Part shown: positions 735 to 60,204 of the stretch, piece after piece | Layout: every line of letters begins with the position of its first letter | How positions within the stretch are numbered: the first letter of the stretch is position 1 | Source of the DNA: Cyrtodaria siliqua | Lineage: Eukaryota; Mollusca; Bivalvia; Adapedonta; Hiatellidae | DNA: 64,000 bases | NCBI GenBank assembly: GCA_037043455.1 | Contig: JAWPHD010010971.1 | Location: 24,033 to 88,032, forward strand | Direction: 5' to 3' | Position numbers and translations under genes: made by a program | The notes under the pieces: generated by a model | Database searches by the model: none | Told to the model about the DNA's origin: nothing | What the model saw: only the letters and a program-made list of their open reading frames with translations

Positions 735-1622
735 AATGGTCAATAGAAACCACAACCCACACAACGCCACCGCAGGCCCTCACTGTACAGCAAACCTAGA
801 GCAAATCCAATATTCAATGAAAATGACAACACACAACACAGGACAATACACAACACAAGACAATACACAACACAAAGAGTTATGAACACTAGGCTACCGA
901 CTTGGAACGGTCATCCCAGCAAAATATCTAGCAATAAAGTGCACTGCAACAGAAATTAGCAAAATATACACTTAACTGTTGTTGTAAAGAGATATAAAAT
1001 ACATAATTAGGAACACCTCAGAATGTATCCAGAACTGTACTAAACAACCACAGCAGTTGCAGCCAAAGAGAAAACCAATCCAGGGTATTACCAATAAACC
1101 TAAAGGCCGAACGTTTATGTACCTACCTCTCCTTTCAGGGTTTTAAAAATTGCAATCGTAGAGTCCCACGAAAGGATCCATTCATCGCACAAGAGAAAAG
1201 TGAAGCGTATTGACTGACTAGAGGGGTCAATCACTAAACATGATGTGTGTTGCAATACTCAAGGGTCGTAACCTTTTTTGACGACTTTCCTGATTAATTG
1301 TGAACAGTCGTCAGGAAACCCGTCAGACTCTTTTAACTTCCAAAGTTTATAGATCATATTTCAATAAAACAAATGCTGTGATATTCCAAGTCGCAGAAAT
1401 GTGTTTAGAATGGTGTTATACTTCTCCAATAGATTTTCGTTGCGGCGATAAAACTTTCAGAAATATCTACGTAGTTTGTGATAACGAAAACCCTGCTGAA
1501 GAAGTTTACTTTAAATAAATAATTTCGATCACTGAATTCCTTAACGTCGTTGCAAGCCCTTGAGAAACGAATGAGCTGGTTGATATAAACCCCGCATGAT
1601 GTAGCACGAGGAACCAAGCTTA
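735..1622 (-). mobile_element. Degraded Naiad-type Penelope-like element, 3' part
   Basis: Read on the minus strand, this runs from the thumb region of a Penelope-like reverse transcriptase (1622 down to about 1150) into a 3' untranslated tail. The tail contains TTCCAAGTCGGTAGCC near 890-910, matching TTCCAAGGCGGTAGCC in the 3' UTR of the intact element at 7875-8383. It is 5'-truncated and broken by frameshifts. The intact element is on the opposite strand, so this is an independent older insertion. Confidence 0.75.
1150..1622 (-). pseudogene. Naiad reverse transcriptase C-terminal fragment
   Basis: The minus-strand translation begins VPRATSCGVYINQLIRFSRA, equivalent to VPRATSYGVYESQLICFSRA in the intact copy. 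After a frameshift it continues with stretches like YHKLR, NLLEKYNTILNTFL and KKGYDP, and ends with a YASLFSCAM segment equivalent to YAFLFNCTM. Two in-frame UGA codons (in the FYGD-like and GYDP-like segments) fall at positions that are not Cys in the intact copy, so here they look like ordinary decay. The Cys of SCLVIDP is still encoded by a Cys codon. The fragment covers only the thumb and C-terminal end; the catalytic core is missing. Confidence 0.75.
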
Positions 1623-1754
1623 TAAGAAATATGTCTTATATATCTCATTCTGTTTCCTTTCCGATGTTTAGTTTATAGACGATGTCTATCTGATAAATAT
1701 GTTTCCTTTCCGATTTAGCGCAACCGTGGACAAGGTAGTAAAAACGCTTCGTCT

Positions 1755-4850: not shown

Positions 4851-7800
4851 AAAACTTCACACATTGAGTTAGAGAAACCCACCCCTGTCACAACAAAATG
4901 TCAAAATTCTATTATATTACGCTATTTCGTCAACAATACAAAAGAATTCCCCGTTTGGCAACAAACTACTAAGAGGTGCAGTTGTTGCAATTATTTATCT
5001 TGCAAGTCCACCATTAAATCAGCTGTTAATGGTAGATTGTTTAATGTTTGTCTAGCTTCTAATGTTGATTGACGTACTTCTCACGTAATTTATGTTCTGA
5101 CTTGACATGCACCAAGTTGCGGTATACAATATGTTGGACAAACAGGTCGATCCTTAAAAGTTCGATTTCGTGAACACAAATATAATGCAAGTAATCCTAA
5201 AAAGTTAAATAATTACTTGTACCAACACTTTCGTCAGTCAGGTCATAATTTTAATAACGTAACTGTTCAACCGGTTGAATATATATTTTTCGATAATGAT
5301 GCTACTAAAAGCTTTAAAATAAAAGCTAGACAGATTGCAGAACTTCAGTGGATGAAAAACTTACAGACACCTTATCCACTCGGCCTTAATGACAATATTT
5401 ATCAAGAAGGAAATATTTCTAAAGATCCTAATATTGACATTTTTTCTATATTTTCTATCCGAAAGCGTAAAGCTAGGTCTCATGGTCTCAGGCGTAATGG
5501 TAACATCAAACGTAAACCGCGTGTAATTATTTCTGTCGCTGATTTACATACCATTTTTAAACAGTCTGGAAAGCACTCTATGCTTTCGCGGCTTACCTCT
5601 TTGTCCATTTCATCACTAAAGTTGATCGACGAGGAAGCCGACGAAATTTTCATTCGTACAGATCCCTTGTATAACACTGCTTCCATAGTTCAAAGTTATA
5701 CACAACATGTTCTCCGACCCCATATTGACAAGGAGTCTGATCACGTCAGGCATTTTCTAAAACTACTATATATTAACAAAGGTATTGATTTCATTGACAT
5801 GCCTAGTATTTTTCGTGATACTCATGTAGTTGATTCTATCCCAAAATATTTCAAAAATTCTGAAAGTCCTGTAATTTGTTATAAGTATAAAAAGCCTATT
5901 AGAAATATTATTTTCAACTACAACAAAGTAGTTTCTGACCTTGATATAGTACATAATACTCCTAAGGAATGTGAATGCAACACATCAAAATTTTGCTATG
6001 CTCCAGCAGGTCATGTTATCACTGGTAATTTTGATATTATTGATAAACGTATTCGGCATTTGTTTTCGAAGGGTCCTAAATATAGATTACCTTCAACTAT
6101 TGATTTTAATGCCTGTCGTGCCCAGATCGCCCACTCCATTGAAGATTTTAGTATCAAATGGTGTCGTAGAGAACATGCGGACCCAAACTCACTTTCTACT
6201 TGGAAAAAGTCAATTCTGAAAATTATAGATACACGTATTAACTTTTATAATGCTAACCCCTCTTTACTTCCTCCGAGACCTAGGTTTTCCTTTCGTAATT
6301 TAAAATCGGGAATTCAGGAATTTCATAATAAATTTGTTTTAGTTCCTGCAGATAAAGCAGCTAATAATGTAATTATTGTTTGACGCCTACATTACGTCAA
6401 TGTTTTATCTCTGGAACTCGGCAGCACCAATTCGTATACTCCAGTTAATTCTACCGAGGATGATGTTGTTTCCGCACATATCACTCGGTGCACTACTTTC
6501 AAGGCTGGTGTAAACGATAAGCAAAATAAACTGCCTACTATGTACTGGATTCCTAAATTACATTAAAATCCATATAAGGCTCGCTTTATTTCGAATTCTA
6601 GTGCCTGAACCACAACAAACATCTCCAAACTTTTAACTTCTTGTCTTACTGCCGTTAAAGATCACGTTAAACTATATTGTGATAAAACTTATGAAAACTC
6701 TGGGATTAATTTATTTTGGTCTATAAAAAATTCAGGAGACGTTCTTGATAAAATGTTCAAGAAAGGTCAAGTTTCATCAATAAGCACTTATGACTTCTCT
6801 ACACTATATACAACTTTACCACATCACCTTATTAAAGACAAGCTAATTTCTCTTATTCAAAAAATATTTGCTAGAGAAAATACTACATTTTTGGCATGTA
6901 ATAATATAAAAGCGTTTTTTACTAACGGCAATTTTGACAATTATACTATGTGGACTTGCTATGAAGTTTGTGAAGCACTCATCTTCCTATTAGATAATAT
7001 TTTCGTCAGGTATGGAACCACCGTTTATAGACAAATTGTTGGTATCCCTATGGGTACGAACTGTGCACCACTTGTCGCAGATTTGTTCTTATTTTGCTAT
7101 GAAAGGGATTTCATGTTGAGTCTTTCACCAGATACCCAGGCAGATGTTATTGAAGCCTTTAATGATACCTCTCGGTATCTGGATGACATATTGAACATTG
7201 ACAACCCTTTATTTCCAACTATGGTTAATTATATTTATCCTAAACAACTTCAGCTTAACAAAGCTAATATATCTGATAATAACGCTTCTTTTCTTGATCT
7301 AGATCTCTCGATTGAAAATGGTAAAATAATTAGCAAAATCTATGACAAGAGAGATGATTTTAATTTTGACATTGTTAATTACCCCCACTTGGATGGGGAT
7401 GTTCCCCGAGCAACTTCTTATGGGGTATATGAGTCTCAACTTATTTGTTTTTCTAGAGCTTGTACTCGAGTTGAGGACTTTAATATTCGTAATCTTTGTA
7501 TAACTAAAAAGTTACTCAGTCAGGGTTACTGTTACCATAAACTTCGTAAAACCTTTGCAAAATATTATTATCGTAACCCTGATCTTCTTTCCAAATATAA
7601 AAGTAATTTAAGGACTCTTCTGCAACAAGGACTATCACAACCTGACTTCTATGGTGATGTGATTTATAAACTTCGTAAGATTCTAGGTCATGATCACTTT
7701 CGTACTATCTTTGTTAAACTTGTTAAAAAGTTTATCAAAAGAGGTTATGACCCTATCATTTTGCAACGTACTGAATGCTTGGTGGTGGACCCTTTTACAG

Positions 7801-7874
7801 TTCGCCACTATGCTTTCCTCTTTAATTGTACGATGACCGGACAGGCTGTGGACCCTATGATGACGCCTACCTAA
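4851..7874 (+). CDS. Naiad GIY-YIG endonuclease/reverse transcriptase, probable selenoprotein
   Basis: This ORF would encode the polyprotein that nicks target DNA and reverse-transcribes the element's RNA in the nucleus. Order: Cys-rich N-terminal segment (RCSCCNYLSCKS near 4974-5009), GIY-YIG domain (VIYVL, QYVGQTGRS, RFREH, 5085-5180), linker region containing CECNTSKFC (about 5970-5996), a fingers region (VPADKA, PTMYWIPKLH), then RT motifs: YDFSTLYTTLP (6786-6818), GIPMGTNCAPLVADLF (7041-7088), YLDD (7176-7187) and a thumb with DGDVPRATSYGVY. The frame is unbroken by indels over about 1,000 codons. Interruptions are UGA at 5070, 5103, 6381 and 6606, and UAA at 6564. UGA is most simply read as selenocysteine; the UAA is a one-base change from the expected Lys codon and would inactivate this copy. 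There is no in-frame ATG near the left end, so the start given is only where similarity seems to begin. The alternative is a decayed copy whose stops happen to be UGA. Confidence 0.8.
5070..5105 (+). other. Two in-frame UGA codons in the GIY-YIG domain
   Basis: UGA codons at 5070-5072 and 5103-5105 are 11 codons apart and flank the VIY strand (U-RTSHVIYVLT-U). In Penelope-like endonucleases, Cys occupies both places, seven residues before the Tyr of VIY and four after it, as half of a CCHH zinc-binding motif. The frame is otherwise open on both sides. Selenocysteine insertion would therefore restore both zinc-ligand positions. The alignment to the family pattern is from memory. Confidence 0.7.
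6381..6383 (+). other. In-frame UGA codon upstream of RT core
   Basis: It sits in the context NNVIIV-UGA-RLHYV. Related elements carry a Cys or Trp here; I cannot tell which is ancestral, and UGA is one base from either. Similarity continues straight through, with LHYVNVLSLEL following in the same frame. Confidence 0.6.
6564..6566 (+). other. In-frame UAA, probable inactivating mutation
   Basis: The UAA follows PTMYWIPKLH and precedes NPYKARFISNSS. Relatives have Lys at this position (LHK-x-PYKARF), so AAA to TAA explains it in one step. It is the only non-UGA stop in the whole frame. Confidence 0.75.
6606..6608 (+). other. In-frame UGA codon at the SSA-C-TTT position
   Basis: The context is FISNSSA-UGA-TTTNISKLLTS. 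Relatives have Cys (NSSSCTTTELSKLLTS, recalled from the family). Other Cys codons in this ORF, such as those of GTNCAP and TECLVV, remain TGY, so only some Cys positions are replaced. Confidence 0.7.
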
Positions 7875-7900
7875 AGCCCATTGGGACGGTGGCGTTTGAT
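7860..7900 (+). promoter_or_regulatory. Candidate SECIS hairpin overlapping the terminator
   Basis: ATGA (7860-7863) is followed by CGCCTACCT, AAA (7873-7875), a mini-helix CCCA-TT-GGG, then GGTGGCG, TT and TGA (7897-7899). CGCC (7864-7867) pairs with GGCG (7891-7894) and ACC (7869-7871) with GGT (7888-7890), leaving one bulged T. Spacing is ATGA-N9-AA-N22-TGA, which fits the classical eukaryotic SECIS pattern; the AAA before a mini-helix resembles form 2. The AA lies within the UAA stop codon at 7872-7874. The helix is short and the two T residues before the 3' TGA are not ideal, so this needs a folding check. I did not find it in the degraded relatives. Confidence 0.5.
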
Positions 7901-8383
7901 GTTTGTCCATGGTCTTTCTTGTCGTGCCCTTAATGGTTTATTCTCTTACTGCTCTGGCTTCTGCAAAGTCATTGAGTACCTTCATTGTGGCTTTCTAGGC
8001 TATTGTTTTTTTGTATTATATTTACACGAGCATATTTGTGTTTTACTTATATTGCCTATTGATGCTGCCTTGTTGGTTAGAGATTAGATCATGGCGGGGA
8101 TTTCTTTATTTACACTGTCCTGTTTTAATGGGATGACAGTAGGGTAAGTGTGAGGTTTGGTGCACCCTAGAACCGGTTTAAACCCCCAGTGGCCTACCTT
8201 ACCACTGACCGTTCCAAGGCGGTAGCCCTATTGTCAACCCTTTTTGTGTTTGTGATGTCGTTTGCATTTATTATTGCTTTTGTCTTCTTGTTTGTCTGTT
8301 TGCGTGTTTGTTTCTGTGTTTTGTGGTTTACTGTCCTCCTTGAATGCTACTTTCCCTGTCCGATCTTTTTATATTTCTCTTAA
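7875..8383 (+). other. 3' UTR of the Naiad element
   Basis: This non-coding tail contains TTTATTTACACTGTCCTG, GGGATGACAGTAGGG, GGTTTGGTGCACC, GGTTTAAACCCC, CCAGTGGCCTACCTTACC, GTTCCAAGGCGGTAGCCC and a T/G-rich stretch ending TGTCCGATCTTTTTATA. GGTAAG near 8137 and CTTACC near 8200 can pair, so part of it may fold. These blocks are the ones conserved in the solo 3' copies elsewhere in the window, which suggests the reverse transcriptase recognises them. The small open frames inside are not credible genes. Confidence 0.7.
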
Positions 8384-9260
8384 TAATGATATTATGTGAT
8401 GCGTCTGCACAAATCATACTACATTCATACGTTAGTGTCTACTCGAAAGAGTTGAACTCAGTATTCAATGTTGTGAATTGAGCAAAATTAAATTCCATGT
8501 TCCTTCTTTCCTTAAGAAAAACACGAAGAGCCAGACAGAAAAATAACTGATTCTCTGCCATATTACTGACGATTTCTAGAAGCACCGCATTTTACTAATC
8601 AAAGGCGCCGCATTATCAAATATCAAAAAACCGGAAATGATTGACGTTTCAAATTATAACGCGAAAAATGATGTAAATTGTATGATGATGTGTAAAATAA
8701 ACAATACCATGTATGTTTTAATGTTGATTTTATTCCAGAAAAGTGTTTCTTGTCCTCATGGGCATCCGATTCCACATTATCATTCGAAGCGCAAAGGACC
8801 GTAACACAAAGTTTAGTTGGAAACCGTACATCGCAATATCTCGAAAAGGTACTTGTACTAATAGTAAATAAAAGAAATCCCCGCCATGAACTATTAAGAC
8901 AGGAATGGGGATGACAAATAATAAGGTATGTTTGAACTGTTTGGAAACTTTGGCACTATGATCTTCAGAGTCAATTGCAAATGGAAGCCCGGCGTACATG
9001 TTTTTTTACAACGCAGACCTTATTGTTAGAGATTTTCTTTTGATGGAATATACTTTTATTTACACTGTGTTTTCAATTTGGGCGCTAAAGACACGATAAT
9101 AGCGAGGTTGTGTACACATGAAATCGACTTAAAGACATCACACCAGAATCGAAAGATCACGGACATTTTACAGCTAGAGACGATCACAAACTTTTTAATC
9201 CTCTACTGTGGAAAATATTTATTGACGCCCTGACATACTTTTATATACGACTACAATGTG
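8384..9260. other. Intergenic DNA, nothing recognised
   Basis: No supported gene. The 89-residue minus-strand frame (8730-8999) has no recognisable motif or start context. Confidence 0.4.
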
Positions 9261-22764: not shown

Positions 22765-22769
22765 GATAT

Positions 22770-24931
22770 AAGTCTTCACATGTTATGCATCTAATTGGTA
22801 AGTCTTCACATGTTTTTCATCTTATTTGCAAGTCTTCACATGTTATGCATCTAATTGGTAAGTCTTCACATGTTTTGCATCTTATTTGTAAGTCTTCACA
22901 TGTTATGCATCTTATTTGTAAGTCTTCACATGTTTTGCATCTTATTTGTATGTCTTCACATGTTATGCATCTAATTGGTAAGTCTTCACATGTTTTGCAT
23001 CTTATTTGTAAGTCTTCACATGTTATGCATCTTATTTGTAAGTCTTCACATGTTTTGCATCTTATTTGTATGTCTTCACATGTTATGCATCTAATTGGTA
23101 AGTCTTCACATGTTTTGCATCTTATTTGTAAGTCTTCACATGTTATGCATCTTATTTGTAAGTCTTCACATGTTTTGCATCTTATTTGTATGTCTTCACA
23201 TGTTATGCATCTTATTTGTAAGTCGTCACATGTTTTGCATCTTATTTGTATGTCTTCACATGTTATGCATCTTATTTGTAAGTCTTCACATGTTTTGCAT
23301 CTTATTTGTATGTCTTCACATGTTATGCATCTTATTTGTTAGTCTTCACATGTTATGCATCTTATTTGTATGTCTTCACATGTTATGCATCTTATTTGTA
23401 AGTCTTCACATGTTTTGCATCTTATTTGTATGTCTTCACATGTTATGCATCTTATTTGTAAGTCTTCACATGTTTTGCATCTTATTTGTAAGTCTTCACA
23501 TGTTTTGCATCTTATTTGTATGTCTTCACATGTTATGCATCTTATTTGTATGTCTTCACATGTTATGCATCTTATTTGTAAGTCTTCACATGTTTTGCAT
23601 CTTATTTGTATGTCTTCACATGTTATGCATCTTATTTGTTAGTCTTCACATGTTATGCATCTTATTTGTATGTCTTCACATGTTATGCATCTTATTTGTA
23701 AGTCTTCACATGTTTTGCATCTTATTTGTATGTCTTCACATGTTATGCATTTTATTTGTAAGTCTTCACATGTTTTGCATCTTATGTGTATGTCTTCACA
23801 TGTTATGCATCTTATTTGTAAGTCTTCACATGTTTTGCATCTTATTTGTAAGTCTTCACATGTTTTGCATCTTATTTGTATGTCTTCACATGTTATGCAT
23901 CTTATTTGTAAGTCTTCACATGTTTTGCATCTTATTTGTATGTCTTCACATGTTATGCATCTTATTTGTAAGTCTTCACATGTTTTGCATCTTATTTGTA
24001 AGTCTTCACATGTTTTGCATCTTATTTGTATGTCTTCACATGTTATGCATCTTATTTGTAAGTCTTCACATGTTTTGCATCTTATTTGTATGTCTTCACA
24101 TGTTATGCATCTTATTTGTAAGTCTTCACATGTTTTGCATCTTATTTGTAAGTCTTCACATGTTTTGCATCTTATTTGTATGTCTTCACATGTTATGCAT
24201 CTTATTTGTAAGTCTTCACATGTTTTGCATCTTATTTGTATGTCTTCACATGTTATGCATCTTATTTGTAAGTCTTCACATGTTTTGCATCTTATTTGTA
24301 AGTCTTCACATGTTTTGCATCTTATTTATATGTCTTCACATGTTATGCATCTTATTTGTAAGTCTTCACATGTTTTGCATCTTATTTGTATGTCTTCACA
24401 TGTTATGCATCTTATTTGTAAGTCTTCACATGTTTTGCATCTTATTTGTAAGTCTTCACATGTTTTGCATCTTATTTGTATGTCTTCACATGTTATGCAT
24501 CTTATTTGTAAGTCTTCACATGTTTTGCATCTTATTTGTATGTCTTCACATGTTATGCATCTTATTTGTAAGTCTTCACATGTTTTGCATCTTATTTGTA
24601 AGTCTTCACATGTTTTGCATCTTATTTGTATGTCTTCACATGTTATGCATCTTATTTGTAAGTCTTCACATGTTTTGCATCTTATTTGTATGTCTTCACA
24701 TGTTTTGCATCTTATTTGTAAGTCTTCACATGTTTTGCATCTTATTTGTAAGTCTTCACATGTTTTGCATCTTATTTGTATGTCTTCACATGTTATGCAT
24801 CTTATTTGTAAGTCTTCACATGTTTTGCATCTTATTTGTATGTCTTCACATGTTATGCATCTTATTTGTAAGTCTTCACATGTTTTGCATCTTATTTGTA
24901 AGTCTTCACATGTTTTGCATCTTATTTGTAC
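22770..24931. repeat. 30-bp minisatellite, about 72 units
   Basis: Unit TCTTCACATGTTTTGCATCT plus TATTTGTAAG, repeated in exact 30-bp register for 2.16 kb. Units vary at two linked sites, TTTTGCAT or TTATGCAT, and TTTGTAAG or TTTGTATG, and early units have CTAATTGG instead of CTTATTTG. The variants alternate in a higher-order pattern that settles to a 120-150 bp super-unit from about 23820 on. Each unit contains ACATGT and ATGCAT dyads. Because 30 is divisible by three, all-open frames of 624, 428 and 185 residues arise; they have no amino-acid-level constraint and I do not regard them as genes. Confidence 0.95.
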
Positions 24932-28189: not shown

Positions 28190-28295
28190 TGTCGGGCCCG
28201 GTAGCGCACTTGGTAGCGCAGTTGGTAGCGCGTTGGATTGTGGATCCGGAGGTCGCGGGTTCGATCTCTTGCCCGGCAACGGTCACTGTGATGAT
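28190..28295 (+). mobile_element. tRNA-derived SINE head
   Basis: GGTAGCGCAGTTGGTAGCGC (A-box region, with the GGTAGCGCA block duplicated) is followed by GAGGTCGCGGGTTCGATCTC (B box) and GCCCGGCAAC. The 36-nt box spacing suits a tRNA promoter. The downstream body (CCTACCGCTGTTTCAAGTGG) is unlike SINE types A-C. Confidence 0.6.
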
Positions 28296-30475: not shown

Positions 30476-30680
30476 CATCAAGAAATATAAAAAGATCGGA
30501 CAGGGAAAGTAGCATTCAAGGAGGACAGTCAACCACAAAACACAGAAACAAACACGCAAACAGACAAACAAGAAGGCAAAAGTAATAATAAATGCAAACG
30601 ACATCACAAACACAAAAGGGTTGACAATACGGCCACCGCCTTGGAACGGTCAGTGGCAAAGTAGGCCGCAGAAAAGTTTG
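30476..30680 (-). mobile_element. Solo Naiad 3' UTR, well conserved
   Basis: AAATATAAAAAGATCGGACA, GGGAAAGTAGCATTCAAGGA, GGACAGTCAACCACAAAACA and GGTTGACAATACGGCCACCG are close reverse complements of the tail of the intact Naiad (8170-8383). ATGATGATCATCATC microsatellite abuts its 3' end, and no RT sequence lies on its 5' side. The high similarity suggests a recent severely 5'-truncated insertion. Confidence 0.8.
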
Positions 30681-33267: not shown

Positions 33268-33636
33268 AACGATTTTTCAAATCATAGTTTTATCTGACAA
33301 CAGAATTGTTTAATTTTTTGCATTCTAGTAGATATGAATATAATGTAGGATTTAAAATGGAAACATATAAAATTGTAAGCAAAATTATTTTTTTCATATT
33401 TTTTCCGTCATTTGTTAAAATATTTTGTTGTATTGGTAGCTCGGAGTAGAATTTATCCTTTTGCTATAGAAAAAATAAGATGTTTGTTTTTCAATAGTGG
33501 AATACATATATGAAAGTAGATACTGAGCTAATTTTATGTTCGATCTCTATGTCAAAATTGTGGGTACAGTATTTTACAGTGAAAATGTCAAAATAACTCC
33601 AAAATGTGTGTAGTGTAATTTAAAGAATTTTTAAAA

Positions 33637-34528
33637 AAAAATCCTTAGAAGCCGGTGACCTATATTTTTTTTTACTTGTTTTGAAAGAAATATCATAGGA
33701 CCTTGTCATATACAAGTTTTAAAGAAAGTTGAGCATAAGAACATACGTATTTTATCTTGAATTATTTTTTTATTAAAAAAAATAATTAAAAAATAATTGG
33801 TGGGGTACGGTCTATATATGTTTGCTTTTCAAAGTAAAAAGACGAATGAGGTTTACAATTGTTTATGTATGTTTTGAAAGAATTGTATATATGTAGTCGA
33901 AAATTAATCGTTGTTTTTCAATAAATGTAATGTCATGAAAAAAAAAAGTGAAAAGGTTCAATGACTTTATTTTTCCTCTTTTTAGTGAAATCTTGAAATT
34001 GGATATATGCGACTTCTTCAAAGACGTCTAGTGGAAAAAAAAGTGTGGTGACCTAGACATTTTTGATAATTTTGTATCTAAAAAAAATCCTTAGAAGCCG
34101 GTGACCTATATTTTTTTTTACTTGTTTTGAAAGAAATATCATAGGACCTTGTCATATACAAGTTTTAAAGAAAGTTGAGCATAAGAACATACGTATTTTA
34201 TCTTGAATTATTTTTTTATTAAAAAAAATAATTAAAAAATAATTGGTGGGGTACGGTCTATATATGTTTGCTTTTCAAAGTAAAAAGACGAATGAGGTTT
34301 ACAATTGTTTATGTATGTTTTGAAAGAATTGTATATATGTAGTCGAAAATTAATCGTTGTTTTTCAATAAATGTAATGTCATGAAAAAAAAAAGTGAAAA
34401 GGTTCAATGACTTTATTTTTCCTCTTTTTAGTGAAATCTTGAAATTGGATATATGCGACTTCTTCAAAGACGTCTAGTGGAAAAAAAAGTGTGGTGACCT
34501 AGACATTTTTGATAATTTTGTATCTAAA
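33637..34528. repeat. 446-bp direct tandem duplication, apparently identical
   Basis: TCCTTAGAAGCCGGTGACCT occurs at 33642 and 34088, and the following sequence through GATAATTTTGTATCTAAA repeats with no difference I could find. Copies are 33637-34082 and 34083-34528. An A-run sits at the junction. Either a very recent duplication or a false duplication introduced in assembly. Confidence 0.9.
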
Positions 34529-43837: not shown

Positions 43838-46073
43838 GCTCGACTATTCGAAGAATAAGAGAGCTTATGTAATCATCCCGGGGTCGGCGTCGGCGTCGGC
43901 GTCCCACATCAAGGTTTGCGTGTAAGCTGTGTTTACAAGTCTATATCTCTTACATTTCTTATCCTACCACAACCAAATTTGTTCCTGTGCTTCCTTGTAG
44001 CATTATCTTAAGGGCTGCATAAGCAATGTTGGTTCCTGTAACCTATGGGCTCCCATGGAACCCAAATTATGATAGCCCATAAAATAATCCCCATTTCACC
44101 TCAAATTTTGCGTGTGAGCTGTGTTTACAAGTCTATATCTCTTACAATTCTTACCCTAGCACAACCAAATTTGGCCATTAGCTTCCTTATAGCATTATCG
44201 TAAGGGCTGCTTAAGTAATTTTGGTTCCTGTAACCCCTTGGCTCCCATGGAACCCAAATTCTGATAGCCCTTAAAATATGTCTGTTTCACATCAAATTTT
44301 GCGTGTAAGCTGTGTTTACAGGCCTATATCTCTTACATTTTTTGTCCTAGCTGAACTAAATTTTGGAATTGGTTTCCTTCTAGTTTATTGTAAAAGGCTG
44401 GATAAGTAATTTTGTCTTCTGCAAATAATGAGCTCCCATGGAACCCGAATTGTGATGGCCCATAAAATGTGCAATAAAGGCAGATCTAGGTTTGCATGTA
44501 AGCATGTATATATCTATAATTTTGGATTTGGGATTTGTTATAGCATTATGCATCTTATTACTTCATGGGCTCCCTACTCCCCCCCCCCCCCCCCCCACTC
44601 TAACCCCGCCCCCACTCCCCTCCACACCTTTATTTTTTTATTATTTTTTACATATTTCTGTGTTGTTTTAGTCAATTCTTACACATATATGTTGCAACCC
44701 TCCCCATCCCCCCCCGCCCCCACCCCCCCCCCCTCACGCCTCTCACCCCATCAGCCCACCGCCTCACCCCACACCCCGCCCCATACTTGAAACATTTTTT
44801 TTTTTTACATATTTCTGTGAGCTTTTGTCAATTCTTACACATATATGTTGCCCCCCCCCCCACCACACCCAAACCCCAACGCATTCCCGCCTGTCACCCA
44901 ATCACACCCACCCCCACCCCGCCCAGACTTGAAACTTTTTTTTATTTTTATTTTTTACATATTTCTTTGTTGTTTTAGATAATTTTTACACATATATGTT
45001 GCCCCATCCACCCCCCACCCACTCAACCCACTCCTGCCTCACACCCTCACCCCCACTTCAACACCCCCCCCCCCCCACCGCCCCCACTTGAAACTATTAT
45101 ATATTTGTTTTACATATTTCTGTGTTGCTTTTGTCAATTCTTACACATATATGTTGTACCACCCCCCCCACCCCCCCCCCCCCCCTCCTAAACCCCTCCC
45201 CCCCCCCACCACTCTCATCCCATCAACCCCGCCCCACACTTGGAACTTTTTTTTTTACATATTTATTGTTTTAGTCAATTCTTACACACATATGTTGCCC
45301 CCTCCCCCCCCCCCCCCACTCCCGCCTCTCACCCCCGCTCCCCCCCCCACCCAACCCCCACTTGAAAATCTAATTTTGTTGGTATTTTTACATATTTCTG
45401 GGTTGTTTTAGTCATTTCTTACACATATATGTTGCAAACTTCCCGTCTCCCAACCCCCCCCCCCCCTCCACACCGACCGCCCCAACCCACTCCCGCCTCT
45501 CCCCCCGCTCTCCCCCACACCCCACACCCACTTGAAACTTTTTTTTATACATATTTCTGTGTTGCTTTTGTCAATTCTTACACATATATGTTACCCCCAC
45601 CACCCCCGCCTCTCACCACGCCCCACTTGATTTTTTTTACATATTTCTTGTTGTTTTAGTCAATACCACATGATGCCCTCCCCACCCCACGCCTCTACCC
45701 CATCCCCACTCAAACTCGATTTTTTAATTATTATTTTTCTTCTTATTTTTATGTTGTTTTGGTGAATTATAACATAGCTTCTTACACATATATGTTGCCC
45801 TCACCACCCCCATTCCCCCACCATCCACCCCCTCCTCTCTCCCACCCCCACCACGCACCCCACTCAAAACTCGATTTTTTATTTATTTATTTTTTATTTA
45901 TTTTTTACATATTTCTGTGTAGTTTTGGTCATTTCTTACACATAGTTATGTTGTGCTCCCAACCCCACCCCACATTGTTGTAGCCTTGTTTTCTGATGGT
46001 ATATACTATCTTTAAATTTATTATTCTCCGAAAAATCGAATAGTCGAGCTGCGCTGTTCTCCGACAGCTCTTG
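43838..46073 (+). mobile_element. 2.2-kb TAGCTCGACTATTCG...CTCTTGTT repeat element
   Basis: The left end TAGCTCGACTATTCGAAGAA is mirrored by AAAATCGAATAGTCGAGCTG near the right end. The element then finishes CGACAGCTCTTGTTT. The left part has GGGGTCGGCGTCGGCGTCGG and three diverged units of about 180 bp around GTGAGCTGTGTTTACAAGTC and AACCAAATTT. The right two thirds is a C-rich minisatellite. There is no ORF with recognisable function. Its 5' TAGCTC and 3' CTCTTGTT match the ends of the element at 17231-20123. Confidence 0.75.
44575..45975. repeat. C-rich minisatellite, about 10 irregular units
   Basis: Each unit has ACATATTTCTGTGTTGTTTT, AGTCAATTCTTACACATATA, TGTTGC and then a long, variable C-rich stretch, ending ACTTGAAACTTTTTTT. 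Unit lengths vary (about 90-180 bp) because the C-rich part expands. The proline-rich open frames on the plus strand are translations of the C tracts and are not credible proteins. Confidence 0.85.
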
Positions 46074-46501: not shown

Positions 46502-47525
46502 CAGTTATTACAACAATCCCTATTTACATAAGCAGTTATTACAACAATCCCTATTTGCATAAGCAGTTATTACAACAATCCCTATTTGCATAAGCAGTTA
46601 TTACAACAATCCCTATTTGCATAAGCAGTTATTACAACAATCCCTATTTGCATAAGCAGTTATTACAACAATCCCTATTTGCATAAGCAGTTATTACAAC
46701 AATCCCTATTTGCATAAGCAGTTATTACAACAATCCCTATTTACATAAGCAGTTATTACAACAATCTCTATTTGCATAAGCAGTTTTTACAACAATCCCT
46801 ATTTGCATAAGCAGTTATTACAACAATCCCTATTTGCATAAGCAGTTATTACAACAATCCCTATTTACATAAGCAGTTATTACAACAATCCCTATTTGCA
46901 TAAGCAGTTATTACAACAATCCCTATTTGCATAAGCAGTTATAACAACAATCCCTATTTGCATAAGCAGTTATTACAACAATCCCTATTTACATAAGCAG
47001 TTATTACAACAATCCCTATTTGCATAAGCAGTTATTACAACAATCCCTATTTGCATAAGCAGTTATTACAACAATCCCTCTTTGCATAAGCAGTTATTAC
47101 AACAATCCCTATTTGCATAAGCAGTTATTACAACAATCCCTATTTGCATAAGCAGTTATTACAACAATCCCTATTTGCATAAGCAGTTATTACAACAATC
47201 CCTATTTGCATAAGCAGTTATTACAACAATCCCTATTTGCATAAGCAGTTATTACAACAATCCCTATTTACATAAGCAGTTATTACAACAATCCCTATTT
47301 GCATAAGCAGTTATTACAACAATCCCTATTTGCATAAGCAGTTATTACAACAATCCCTATTTACATAAGCAGTTATTACAACAATCCCTATTTGCATAAG
47401 CAGTTATTACAACAATCCCTATTTGCATAAGCAGTTATTACAACAATCCCTATTTACATAAGCAGTTATTACAACAATCCCTATTTACATAAGCAGTTAT
47501 TACAACAATCCCTATTTACATAAGC
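46502..47525. repeat. 31-bp minisatellite, about 33 units
   Basis: Unit CAGTTATTACAACAATCCCT plus ATTTGCATAAG, repeated with very low divergence. The main variant is ATTTACATAAG, at irregular intervals. ATTTGCAT is an octamer-like sequence present in most units. The 31-bp period prevents a long open frame. Confidence 0.95.
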
Positions 47526-47860
47526 AAGAAGGATGTGCCCATCTAGTTGTCAAGAAGGAAACATGTAGATCCATAAAGTATATAATTACGTCACATGTGT
47601 GTCCATATTATAGGCAAACATGTGGCTCGATTTAATCTAGTGTTAAATATTGCTATTTATTATAAACCTTCCCGTGAAATAGTGGATTTTATGATTAAAA
47701 TAAAACCTTAAATTTTCATTGTTTATATTTCACATGTGAAATTTTCACTAAAAATTACGTCATACAACTGTTGACGTTGTTTACGTTATTGACGTCATTG
47801 TTTTGGCGCATTGTAATTTTCCTGCATAAATTTCCAAGTTGTGAGTATATAATAAATAGA
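47526..47860. other. Intergenic DNA, nothing recognised
   Basis: No supported gene. Confidence 0.35.
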
Positions 47861-54971: not shown

Positions 54972-55250
54972 AAAAAGTAGATATAAAAGTCGAACGTAGC
55001 ACTGTAGCATTCAAGGACCACAGTCAACCAAATCACGCATCGACAGAAACAAGAATCACAAGGATAAATACGCGGCAAGTTATGTGAACTCACAAACGCA
55101 AATGGTTTGACAATGCGGCTACTGCCTTGATCCTTAAACCGGGTTATATGGTGAAACAAACCTCACCATAAGCCTATTGTTATTCAAAAAATAAACAGGA
55201 CAGTGTAAAAAAAGAAATCCCGCCAGGCTATATCCTCTAACTAGGCATCA
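54972..55250 (-). mobile_element. Longer solo Naiad 3' UTR in duplication copy 1
   Basis: GATATAAAAGTCGAACGTAG, GCATTCAAGGACCACAGTCA, TTTGACAATGCGGCTACTGC, TTAAACCGGGTTATATGGTG and AAACAGGACAGTGTAAA follow the reverse order of the intact Naiad 3' UTR back to its TTTACACTGTCCTG block (about 8110). It is a 5'-truncated insertion without RT. Confidence 0.7.
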
Positions 55251-56398
55251 TTAATAGGTATTCTAATAAGAATAACTCAAAGATGATCATGTGTATATGA
55301 ATAAAAAAATAAGACTAGAAAGTCAAACACTTAAGCAATGATTCTAGAGCAACAAGAGAATAAAACACTTAAAGGCGCGACTAGACAAGATTGGAGACAT
55401 ATATGTTTTTATCCCCTATGGCTGACACCGAAGTGCGTTTTAGTTGTGTTGTGTGGAAGTCCGAAATAAAATCGATTTGTTTGAACGTTAAGATGTGGCC
55501 TGAGTTCACAATGCAATATTCATAGAAATCAGGCATTGAAATTCACCAGTAAAATATGATTAGTATTACTTATATTACATTGTTGTTTTTTTGCTGTTGT
55601 TGTTTTTGTTTATTCCTGTATTCTCGCATGTACGCAGTGTTATATTCTCTTATAAGCGCGTGTATATATTCTACTATTCGCGCGTTTATATTCCCATGAT
55701 AAACAGAGCACTCTTTATTCTCCGAGCATTGTCATTAATACTAAGAACAGTATGATTTAGTAGTTCATTAGTTTAGTGTCAAACACACTTTCTTTAATGT
55801 GTATTGGTATATGTTGCCCTGTTCACATTTCTACAACTCCGCTAGGGTAATATAGAGATTACTACATGGATGTCGTTGCCTTTTGCTATCAGTCCTAGAG
55901 CTACCTTGTATATACTGAACGTCAGGCTGTGGAGCTACTGGTATCCTTGGTATGACGTCTTTGGTATGACTAGGCCGGGAATAATATTAACACATCTCTC
56001 ATGCATTGCTGATGCTCTTCCGCTACCAACTGTACACGCTTCAGAATAATAAAGAACTCGGATTATTAGTGGTTCAAACGCGAAACCAAGTTTATGGATG
56101 GTTCCCGGCAATCCGTGTTTTGTTTCGTTGAATGCTGTTAACTGCGAACATAAAAAAATCTTCCGTTTGCAATTTCCGATCAACATTACAAGCCAACAAT
56201 GTTGTTGTTTGCACATGACAACATCGCTTATGAAATATTGTTAGACAAATAGGTTCTTAGTGAACATTATTTATACAAATTCAATATTAAGACATCAATT
56301 CGATTAAATCCAATTTAATCACAAGAAAATGTGTATGCAACACATCAATTCGTAGCATTTAGAGAATCGTCCAATATCGTTTTAATTCTATTATAACA
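55251..56398. other. Rest of duplication copy 1, repeat-like
   Basis: A GGTTCAAACGCGAAACCAAG/TTTATGGATGGTTCCCGGCA block near 56068-56110 has relatives near 54370-54420 and 56530-56570, so it is part of another dispersed sequence. The 93-residue minus frame at 55935-56216 covers it; no domain recognised. Confidence 0.4.
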
Positions 56399-58773: not shown

Positions 58774-59050
58774 AAAGTAGATATAAAAGCCGAACGTAGC
58801 ATTGTAGCATTCAAGGATCACAGTCAACCAAATCACGCACCGACAGAAACAAGAATCACAAGGCTAAATACGCGGCAAGTTATGTGACATCACAATCGCA
58901 AATAGTTTGACAATGGGGCTACTGCCTTGGCGCTTAAACCGGAGTTATATGGTGAAACAAACCTCACCCTAAGCCTATTGTCATTCAAAAAATAAACAGG
59001 ACAGTGTAAAACAGAAATCCCGCCAGGCTATATCCTCTAACTAGGCATCA
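58774..59050 (-). mobile_element. Longer solo Naiad 3' UTR in duplication copy 2
   Basis: Duplicate of 54972-55250 (GATATAAAAGCCGAACGTAG, GACAATGGGGCTACTGCCTT, TTAAACCGGAGTTATATGGT). Confidence 0.7.
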
Positions 59051-60204
59051 TTAATAGGTATTCTAATAAGAATAACACAGATGATCATGTGTATATGAAT
59101 AAAAAAACAATAAGACTAGAAAGCCAAAAACTTACGCAATGATTCTAGAGCAACAAGAGACTAAAACACTTAAAGGCGCGACTAGACAAGATTGGAGACA
59201 TATATGTTCTTATCCCCTATGGCTGACACCGAAGTGCGTTTTAGTTGTGTTGTATGGAAGTCCGAAATAAAATCGATTTGTTTGAACGTTAAGATGTGGC
59301 CTGAGTTCACAATGCAATATTCATAGAAATCAAGCAAAACATGGCATTGAAATTCACCAGTAAAATATGATTAGTATTACTTATATTACATTGTTGTTTT
59401 TTTGCTGTTGTTGTTTTTATTTATTCCTGTATTCTCGCATGTACGCAGTGTTATATTCTCATATTAGCGCGTGTATATATTCTACTTTTCGCGCGTTTAT
59501 ATTCCCATGATAAACAGAGCACTCTTTATTCTCCGAGCATTGTCATCAATACTAGGAACAGTATGATTTAGTAGTTCATTAGTTTAGTGTCAAAAATACA
59601 CTTCCTTTATTGTGTATTGGTATATGTTGCCCTGTTCACATTTCTACAACTCTCCAACTCCGCTGGGGTAATATAGAGATTACTACATGGATGTCGTTGC
59701 CTTTTGCTATCAGTCCTAGAGCTACCTTGTATATACTGAGCTACTGGTATCCTTGGTATGACGTCTTTGGTATGACTAGGCCGGGAATAATATTAAGACA
59801 TCTCTCATGCATTGCTGATGCTCTTCCGCTACCAACTGTACACGCTTCAGAATAATAAAGAACTCGGATTATTAGTGGTTCAAACGCGAAACCCAGTTTA
59901 TGGATGGTTCCCGGCAATCCGTGTTTTGTTTCGTTGAATGCTGTTAACTGGGAATATTAAAAAAAATTCTTTCGTTTGCAATTTCCAATCAATATTACAA
60001 GCCAACAATGTTGTTGTTTGCACATGACAACATCGCTTATGAAATATTGTTAAAAAAATAGGTTCTTAGTGAACATTATTTATACAAATTCAATATTAAG
60101 ACATCAATTCGATTTAATCCAATTTAATCACAAGAAAATGTGTATGCAACACATCAATTCGCAGAGTATCGTCCAATATCGTTTTAATTATATTATAACA
60201 GCGT

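What the first reader, a model, noticed from the sequence alone, without database searches (positions are those of the whole stretch)
4851..7874. Retroelement ORF with four in-frame UGA codons, three at Cys positions of relatives
Seen: one reading frame of about 1,000 codons with no indel, carrying UGA at 5070, 5103, 6381 and 6606 and a single UAA at 6564. From family knowledge, Cys is expected at 5070, 5103 and 6606, and Cys or Trp at 6381. Random decay would not give four UGA to one UAA/UAG while preserving frame and placing UGA at Cys sites. Published work on Naiad elements reports selenoprotein-encoding lineages in spiders and clams; this copy fits that description. Two of the UGAs would put Sec in the zinc-ligand positions of the GIY-YIG domain, which is biochemically unusual.
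Basis: partly seen in the sequence, partly recalled or inferred. Interest (0 to 1): 0.88.

Follow-up and report, generated by a model that had tools for sequence, protein, structure and literature searches.

The report
Selenium-using jumping gene in a clam
A jumping gene, present mostly in pieces at more than two thousand places in a bivalve (clam-like) genome, has three in-frame UGA stop codons where its relatives nearly always have the amino acid cysteine, and its 3' end matches the RNA signal for reading UGA as selenocysteine, so it is predicted to make a selenium-containing copying enzyme.

Summary
The frame is real, with two corrections. The copy is 5'-truncated (element starts at 4967; 4851-4966 is flank), and only three of the four UGAs are fixed: 5070 (38 of 40 copies), 5103 (41 of 41), 6381 (40 of 41). 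UGA 6606 and UAA 6564 are decay. The fixed UGAs lie on Cys columns of relatives (51/52; 56/56; 108 Cys + 9 Trp of 119). An Rfam SECIS_1 match (39.4 bits) covers 7849-7909, and the UAA stop (7872) lies inside it. A second family in the same genome, 63% identical in protein, keeps the three UGAs, adds two at Cys columns and has its own SECIS match; four SECIS pairs changed on both sides. tRNA-Sec and SepSecS genes are present. The protein models as GIY-YIG nuclease plus telomerase-like reverse transcriptase, the Naiad order (recalled). Sec-encoding Naiads of clams and spiders are published (recalled; paper not held), so this is a new member of a known kind. One feature I did not find described: the ORF ends inside its own SECIS. 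Sec insertion itself is predicted, not shown.

The parts
4967..8378 (+). Naiad-like element, 5'-truncated copy
   Evidence: Homology to 40 other copies starts at 4967 in most and ends at about 8378-8385 in those that reach the 3' end; about 710 bp of 5' sequence seen in other copies is missing here.
4968..7874 (+). reading frame of the GIY-YIG nuclease / reverse transcriptase, residues 117 to the end of a 1,084-residue protein
   Evidence: model with telomerase-like RT and I-TevI-like GIY-YIG.
5070..5072 (+). UGA 1 (site 151), predicted Sec
   Evidence: TGA in 38 of 40 copies; 99 of 100 listed genome places of 111, one TGT; Cys in 51 of 52 relatives.
5103..5105 (+). UGA 2 (site 162), predicted Sec, Cys just before GIY-YIG
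   Evidence: TGA in 41 of 41 copies; 67 of 67 genome places; Cys in 56 of 56 relatives.
6381..6383 (+). UGA 3 (site 588), predicted Sec, RT fingers region
   Evidence: TGA in 40 of 41 copies; 100 of 100 listed of 2,559 genome places; Cys 108 and Trp 9 of 119 relatives.
6564..6566 (+). private UAA (decay)
   Evidence: AAA in 39 of 41 copies, TAA 1, ACA 1.
6606..6608 (+). UGA at a conserved Cys (site 663), not family-wide
   Evidence: TGC in 38 of 40, TGA in the window and L050 only; 0 of 100 listed genome places TGA.
7849..7909 (+). SECIS-like hairpin overlapping the end of the frame
   Evidence: Rfam RF00031 39.4 bits, gathering 35; fold z-score -3.5; covariation with family B.
7872..7874 (+). 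UAA stop codon, in the unpaired UAAA of the SECIS apical part
   Evidence: TAA in 33 of 38 copies with letters there; position in the hairpin.

Best explanation
This is a 5'-truncated, decayed copy of a Naiad-like Penelope retroelement whose family in this bivalve genome carries three fixed in-frame UGA codons and a SECIS-like hairpin at the end of the frame, and which is therefore predicted to be translated as a selenoprotein with three selenocysteines. Likely mechanism: host tRNA-Sec and its factors, recruited by the 3' hairpin, would insert Sec at the three UGAs and give a protein of about 1,084 residues, a GIY-YIG endonuclease followed by a telomerase-like reverse transcriptase; without Sec insertion the frame would stop at the first UGA, after about 150 residues. 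Shown here: fixation of the UGAs, their place on Cys columns, the hairpin and its covariation between two families, purifying selection on the frame, and tRNA-Sec and SepSecS genes in the assembly. Inferred: Sec insertion itself, enzyme activity, and what Sec does in place of Cys.
For: UGAs fixed in copies and on Cys columns of relatives. SECIS_1 match in the window and in the main copy of 24 of 40 fetched loci (my count). Family B: five UGAs at the same places in three copies read, three of them shared with A, the other two at A-sites 451 and 675 where A has Cys; six of ten near-full-length B matches at 92% identity or more have exactly 5 TGA, two have 4, two have 6; SECIS_1 36.5 bits in L058. 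A versus B: dN 0.28, dS about 2.3. Four SECIS pairs change on both sides; 98.8% of cells pair against 36-49% when slid. Variants seen in five or more A copies: 53 synonymous, 30 nonsynonymous, 0 stop. tRNA-Sec: 7 of 17 matches over the cut-off, ARAGORN agrees in 5 of 7 loci; SepSecS 8 exon matches.
Against: No RNA or protein data. SBP2 and eEFSec genes were not searched. Only 2 copies (L051, L052) of 40 were found fully open from the recognised ATG motif to the stop with exactly three UGAs, and both have G at the first base of the AUGA quartet; L052 falls below the Rfam cut-off. The whole-genome search with the SECIS model found nothing, in controls either, so it is uninformative. In one search the number of pairs changed on both sides is reached by 89 of 500 shuffles (cells changed and score: 0 of 500), and the six rows are in effect two families. 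Site 588 has Trp in 9 of 119 relatives.
Confidence: 0.93

Rival explanations
1. The UGAs are ordinary nonsense decay in a dead element.
For: True for 6606 and for the UAA at 6564, and for the scattered stops of other copies (85 at 76 columns). Single-copy variants look neutral.
Against: The three UGAs are the majority codon in 41 copies, are shared by a family with near-saturated synonymous divergence, and all lie on Cys columns.
Confidence: 0.02
2. The UGAs are read through by a near-cognate tRNA (for example Trp or Cys) without selenium, and the hairpin does something else.
For: Nine relatives, all in the close group of 26, have Trp at site 588, though I infer that these are UGAs translated as Trp by a gene caller.
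Against: SECIS_1 matches in both families with compensatory changes; sites are Cys, not Trp, in distant relatives; tRNA-Sec genes present.
Confidence: 0.04
3. The host nucleus reads UGA as a sense codon everywhere.
For: None found; the TGAs in COX1 are read as Trp under the mitochondrial code.
Against: The A frame of L052 uses TGG 6, TGT 15 and TGC 12 times and TGA only 3 times, at the three fixed sites. Bivalves use the standard nuclear code (established knowledge). Host genes were not surveyed.
Confidence: 0.01

Closest known systems
Selenoprotein-encoding Naiad elements of spiders and clams (Craig, Yushenova, Rodriguez and Arkhipova 2021, Mol Biol Evol; recalled, paper not held)
   Same: N-terminal GIY-YIG, RT, several in-frame UGAs at Cys positions, bivalve host.
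   Different: Host is near Panopea and razor clams by COX1. Whether the published elements have the same UGA sites, a five-UGA family or a stop codon inside the SECIS could not be checked.
Cys-type Naiad-like proteins (for example P0017, P0043; one relative, P0070, is labelled Pinctada imbricata)
   Same: Same domain order and conserved Cys and His columns, 30-40% identity.
   Different: Cys instead of UGA at the three sites; two residues between site 162 and C167 in 55 of 55 relatives against four in A and B; none of 94 distant relatives aligns over the C-terminal 45 residues.
Fowlpox GPX4, with its SECIS inside the ORF (passages of PMC6769590)
   Same: SECIS overlaps coding sequence; reported to work in mammalian cells.
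   Different: Here the stop codon itself lies within the SECIS, the gene is a retroelement, and there are three or five UGAs.
Selenoprotein P (start of abstract of PMC8230778 in the listing)
   Same: Several Sec codons in one message.
   Different: Different protein; the Sec sites here are spread over a polymerase and a nuclease at ancestral Cys columns.

Membership tests
Naiad (Penelope-like elements with N-terminal endonuclease; definition recalled) | GIY-YIG domain N-terminal to the RT | tested here: met
Naiad (Penelope-like elements with N-terminal endonuclease; definition recalled) | CxC motif in the linker | tested here: met
   C451 and C453, Cys in 97 and 102 of 107 relatives; in family B the first is UGA.
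Naiad (Penelope-like elements with N-terminal endonuclease; definition recalled) | CCHH motif of the nuclease | tested here: met
   Sites 162 (UGA here), C167, H203, H209: Cys 56/56, Cys 56/57, His 62/64, His 51/64 in relatives. Met only if UGA is Sec or Cys.
Naiad (Penelope-like elements with N-terminal endonuclease; definition recalled) | groups with Naiads in an RT tree | not tested
   No reference sequence named Naiad was at hand.
Naiad (Penelope-like elements with N-terminal endonuclease; definition recalled) | no hammerhead ribozyme | tested here: inconclusive
   No Rfam hammerhead match at the gathering score in the window or in 40 loci; divergent motifs may be missed.
Naiad (Penelope-like elements with N-terminal endonuclease; definition recalled) | insertion-in-fingers domain of the RT | not tested
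   Not examined in the model.
Eukaryotic selenoprotein gene | in-frame UGA at a conserved Cys/Sec position | tested here: met
Eukaryotic selenoprotein gene | SECIS at the 3' end of the message | tested here: met
   It overlaps the last codons and the stop.
Eukaryotic selenoprotein gene | host Sec machinery | tested here: met
   tRNA-Sec and SepSecS; SBP2 and eEFSec not searched.
Eukaryotic selenoprotein gene | Sec present in the protein | not testable with these tools
   Needs reporter, mass spectrometry or 75Se labelling.

The most novel reading that the evidence does not exclude
A selenium-gated, self-limiting retrotransposon: the stop codon of the polymerase frame is built into its own SECIS (UAA in the apical A-motif in family A, the UGA of the AUGA core quartet in family B). 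Each ribosome that finishes the protein enters and opens the very hairpin that decodes the upstream UGAs, so completing one polymerase pauses Sec decoding for the next, and transposition depends on host selenium. In family B a single codon, UGA, means Sec five times and stop once in one message, decided by its position relative to the SECIS.
Probability: 0.2. Interest if true: 0.85.

Novelty: new member of a known kind. Interest (0 to 1): 0.62.

Why it matters
If true, a mobile element has tied its polymerase and nuclease to the host's selenium supply and needs three (family A) or five (family B) UGA recodings per protein. Two sister families in one genome allow stepwise Cys-to-Sec replacement to be followed. 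The overlap of stop codon and SECIS offers a natural test of how ribosome passage affects SECIS function. It also shows how annotation can cut such proteins: none of the 26 closest database relatives reaches the first two UGA sites, against 51 of 94 distant ones that reach the second.

Tried and rejected
A four-UGA subfamily through L050, which shares that UGA: L050 is not among the eight copies nearest to the window, not pursued. Enrichment of private UGAs at Cys codons: 4 of 21 private TGAs come from TGC, too few to claim. Constant UGAC context: fails at 5103 (20 UGAC, 20 UGAA, 1 UGAT). Ser at site 167 in family B: only in L058, Cys in L059 and L060. Pfam on the window's two frame pieces and on L052: no match, although some relatives carry PF01541 and PF00078. 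PDB sequence search: four rows, best E 0.032, none a reverse transcriptase or nuclease. Genome search with Rfam SECIS_1: no match, none in the controls either. Viral contigs: 34 pattern matches, none a relative. Papers (search listings only): no listed paper joins Penelope-like or Naiad elements with selenoproteins (0 papers each); one search lists one Orthoptera TE library; others (20 papers; 5 papers) show no such title, and none of these was opened. Searches were searches on SECIS in coding regions and on molluscan selenoproteins. Of PMC6769590 I saw passages. The library does not hold the 2021 Naiad paper or the 2007 paper on SECIS in coding regions, so absence from print is not claimed.

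Selection of rows: of 98 non-window places, the 40 best-scoring were fetched and 58 were not, which favours well-kept copies. Of 183 homologous proteins 120 were listed and aligned. One search used 3 of 41 A copies (window and the two fully open ones) and the 3 B copies fetched. My ten B matches are those at 92% identity or more starting at query residue 1-2 and ending at 655 or beyond; lower-identity B-like matches have up to 11 TGA and 6 TAA.

Full report
Observation. Translation of 4851-7874 shows the frame as described: UGA at 5070, 5103, 6381 and 6606, UAA at 6564, end at UAA 7872. The window lies in an assembly of 2.88 Gb and 26,948 contigs. Its COX1 is closest to Panopea (80%), then Novaculina (75%), Ensis and Solen (74%), so the host is a bivalve near geoducks and razor clams; the species was not identified.

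Copies. Forty further copies were fetched and aligned to the window. Homology starts at about 4967, so the window copy is 5'-truncated and 4851-4966 is flank. In 22 of 40 upstream pieces the ATG motif was recognised, and 20 of the 22 run in frame without a stop into the element, about 116 codons. Two copies, L051 and L052, are open from that ATG to the stop with exactly three UGAs, giving 1,084 residues. Over 41 copies: 5070 is TGA in 38 of 40, 5103 in 41 of 41, 6381 in 40 of 41; 6606 is TGC in 38 of 40 and TGA in 2; 6564 is AAA in 39 of 41; 7872 is TAA in 33 of 38 with letters. The only majority codons that are stops are the three UGAs. Exact matches across the genome agree: site 6381, 2,559 places, 100 of 100 listed TGA; site 5103, 67 of 67 TGA; site 5070, 111 places, 99 of 100 listed TGA and one TGT; site 6606, 2,322 places, 97 TGC, 3 TGT and 0 TGA of 100 listed. 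The copies look like separate insertions: no two 3' flanks matched, and the ten matching 5' flank pairs involve five loci in which a preceding copy lies upstream in tandem.

Selection. Variants seen in one copy match neutral expectation: of 996, 24.6% synonymous, 71.2% nonsynonymous, 4.2% stop, against 24.6, 71.8 and 3.6% expected at kappa 2. Variants in five or more copies are 53 synonymous, 30 nonsynonymous, 0 stop. So copies decay freely after insertion while the replicating lineages keep the protein.

Relatives. 183 homologous proteins were found and 120 listed. At the three sites they have Cys in 51 of 52, Cys in 56 of 56, and Cys 108 plus Trp 9 of 119. Fifteen of 1,084 positions have Cys in at least half of the relatives (my count), so three random positions would all fall there with a chance of about 3 in a million (own arithmetic). 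None of the 26 closest relatives (43% identity or more) reaches site 162, against 51 of 94 others, as expected if UGAs cut their predicted frames (inference). All nine Trp at site 588 are in this close group, and four of those rows also have Trp at 451, a UGA site of family B; I infer that a gene caller read UGA as Trp; not tested.

Second family. The genome holds family B, 63% identical to A over 1,069 aligned codons. Three copies read (L058, L059, L060) have UGA at A-sites 151, 162, 451, 588 and 675. Of ten near-full-length B matches six have exactly 5 TGA, two 4 and two 6. Between A and B dN is 0.28 and dS about 2.3, near saturation, and the three UGAs of A are UGA in B. With a Cys-type relative (P0017) as query, all 36 scored places in this genome carry two or more TGA: 26 have exactly three, six have four, two five, two two (my count). 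Both families have four residues between site 162 and C167, where 55 of 55 relatives have two.

SECIS. Rfam SECIS_1 matches 7849-7909 at 39.4 bits and reaches the gathering score in the main copy of 24 of 40 loci (my count); some of the others are truncated before it, others carry changes in it, L052 among them. L058 of family B matches at 36.5 bits with a different sequence. On six rows (three A, three B) 98.8% of cells pair, four pairs change on both sides, and sliding the structure by one to three columns lowers pairing to 36-49%; the count of such pairs is however reached by 89 of 500 shuffles, the covariation score by none. These are in effect two independent families.

Stop codon inside the SECIS. 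In A the UAA stop is the start of the unpaired UAAA of the apical part. In B the frame runs, in the two copies without frameshift (L058 and L059, each with one private UAA upstream), into the UGA of the AUGA core quartet; L060 has the same sequence there behind a frameshift. The tail 1071-1084 of A is modelled below pLDDT 50, yet 13 of the 26 close relatives end in MMAPT, MMVPT or MMAST, where A reads MMTPT; I infer that RNA structure rather than protein fold keeps it. That a SECIS can work inside an ORF is reported for fowlpox GPX4 (passages of PMC6769590).

Host machinery. Seven of 17 tRNA-Sec matches exceed the Rfam cut-off, and ARAGORN calls tRNA-Sec (anticodon tca) in 5 of those 7 loci. 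SepSecS has 8 exon matches, 7 on one contig.

Verdict. A new member of a known kind (Sec-encoding Naiads, recalled): three fixed UGAs in this family, five in its sister, and a frame that ends within the SECIS. Sec insertion, selenium dependence and any self-limiting effect are predictions.

Noticed in passing
window 22769-24930: Tandem array with periods of 60 and 90 bases, 95-96% alike, 36 copies of 60; it is open in several frames (up to 624 aa), which are likely not genes.
   Followed up: no
window 33634-34528: Perfect two-copy tandem duplication of 446 bases (100% matches): recent or an assembly effect.
   Followed up: no
window 46502-47526: 31-base tandem repeat, 33 copies, 97%.
   Followed up: no
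window 44001-46000: Strong GC skew of -0.54 with a C-rich tandem repeat of period 155 at 44637-45318.
   Followed up: no
window 28212-28274: tRNA-like Rfam match, 36.4 bits.
   Followed up: no
window 30481-30667, 58934-59126, 55134-55309 (all -) and 1151-1629 (-): Fragments of the element's 3' end (96, 76 and 75% identity) and a stretch related to its RT.
   Followed up: no
L058, L059, L060 (family B), after the SECIS: Beyond the UGA in the SECIS quartet the B frame stays open for dozens of codons, with a further UGA in all three copies read; probably 3' untranslated sequence.
   Followed up: no
window 6606 and L050: The same conserved Cys codon (TGC) became TGA in two copies that are not nearest neighbours.
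   Followed up: partly
genome places C593:405583-407424 and C501:310832-312700: Older B-like copies (80% identity) with 9-11 TGA and 4-6 TAA.
   Followed up: no
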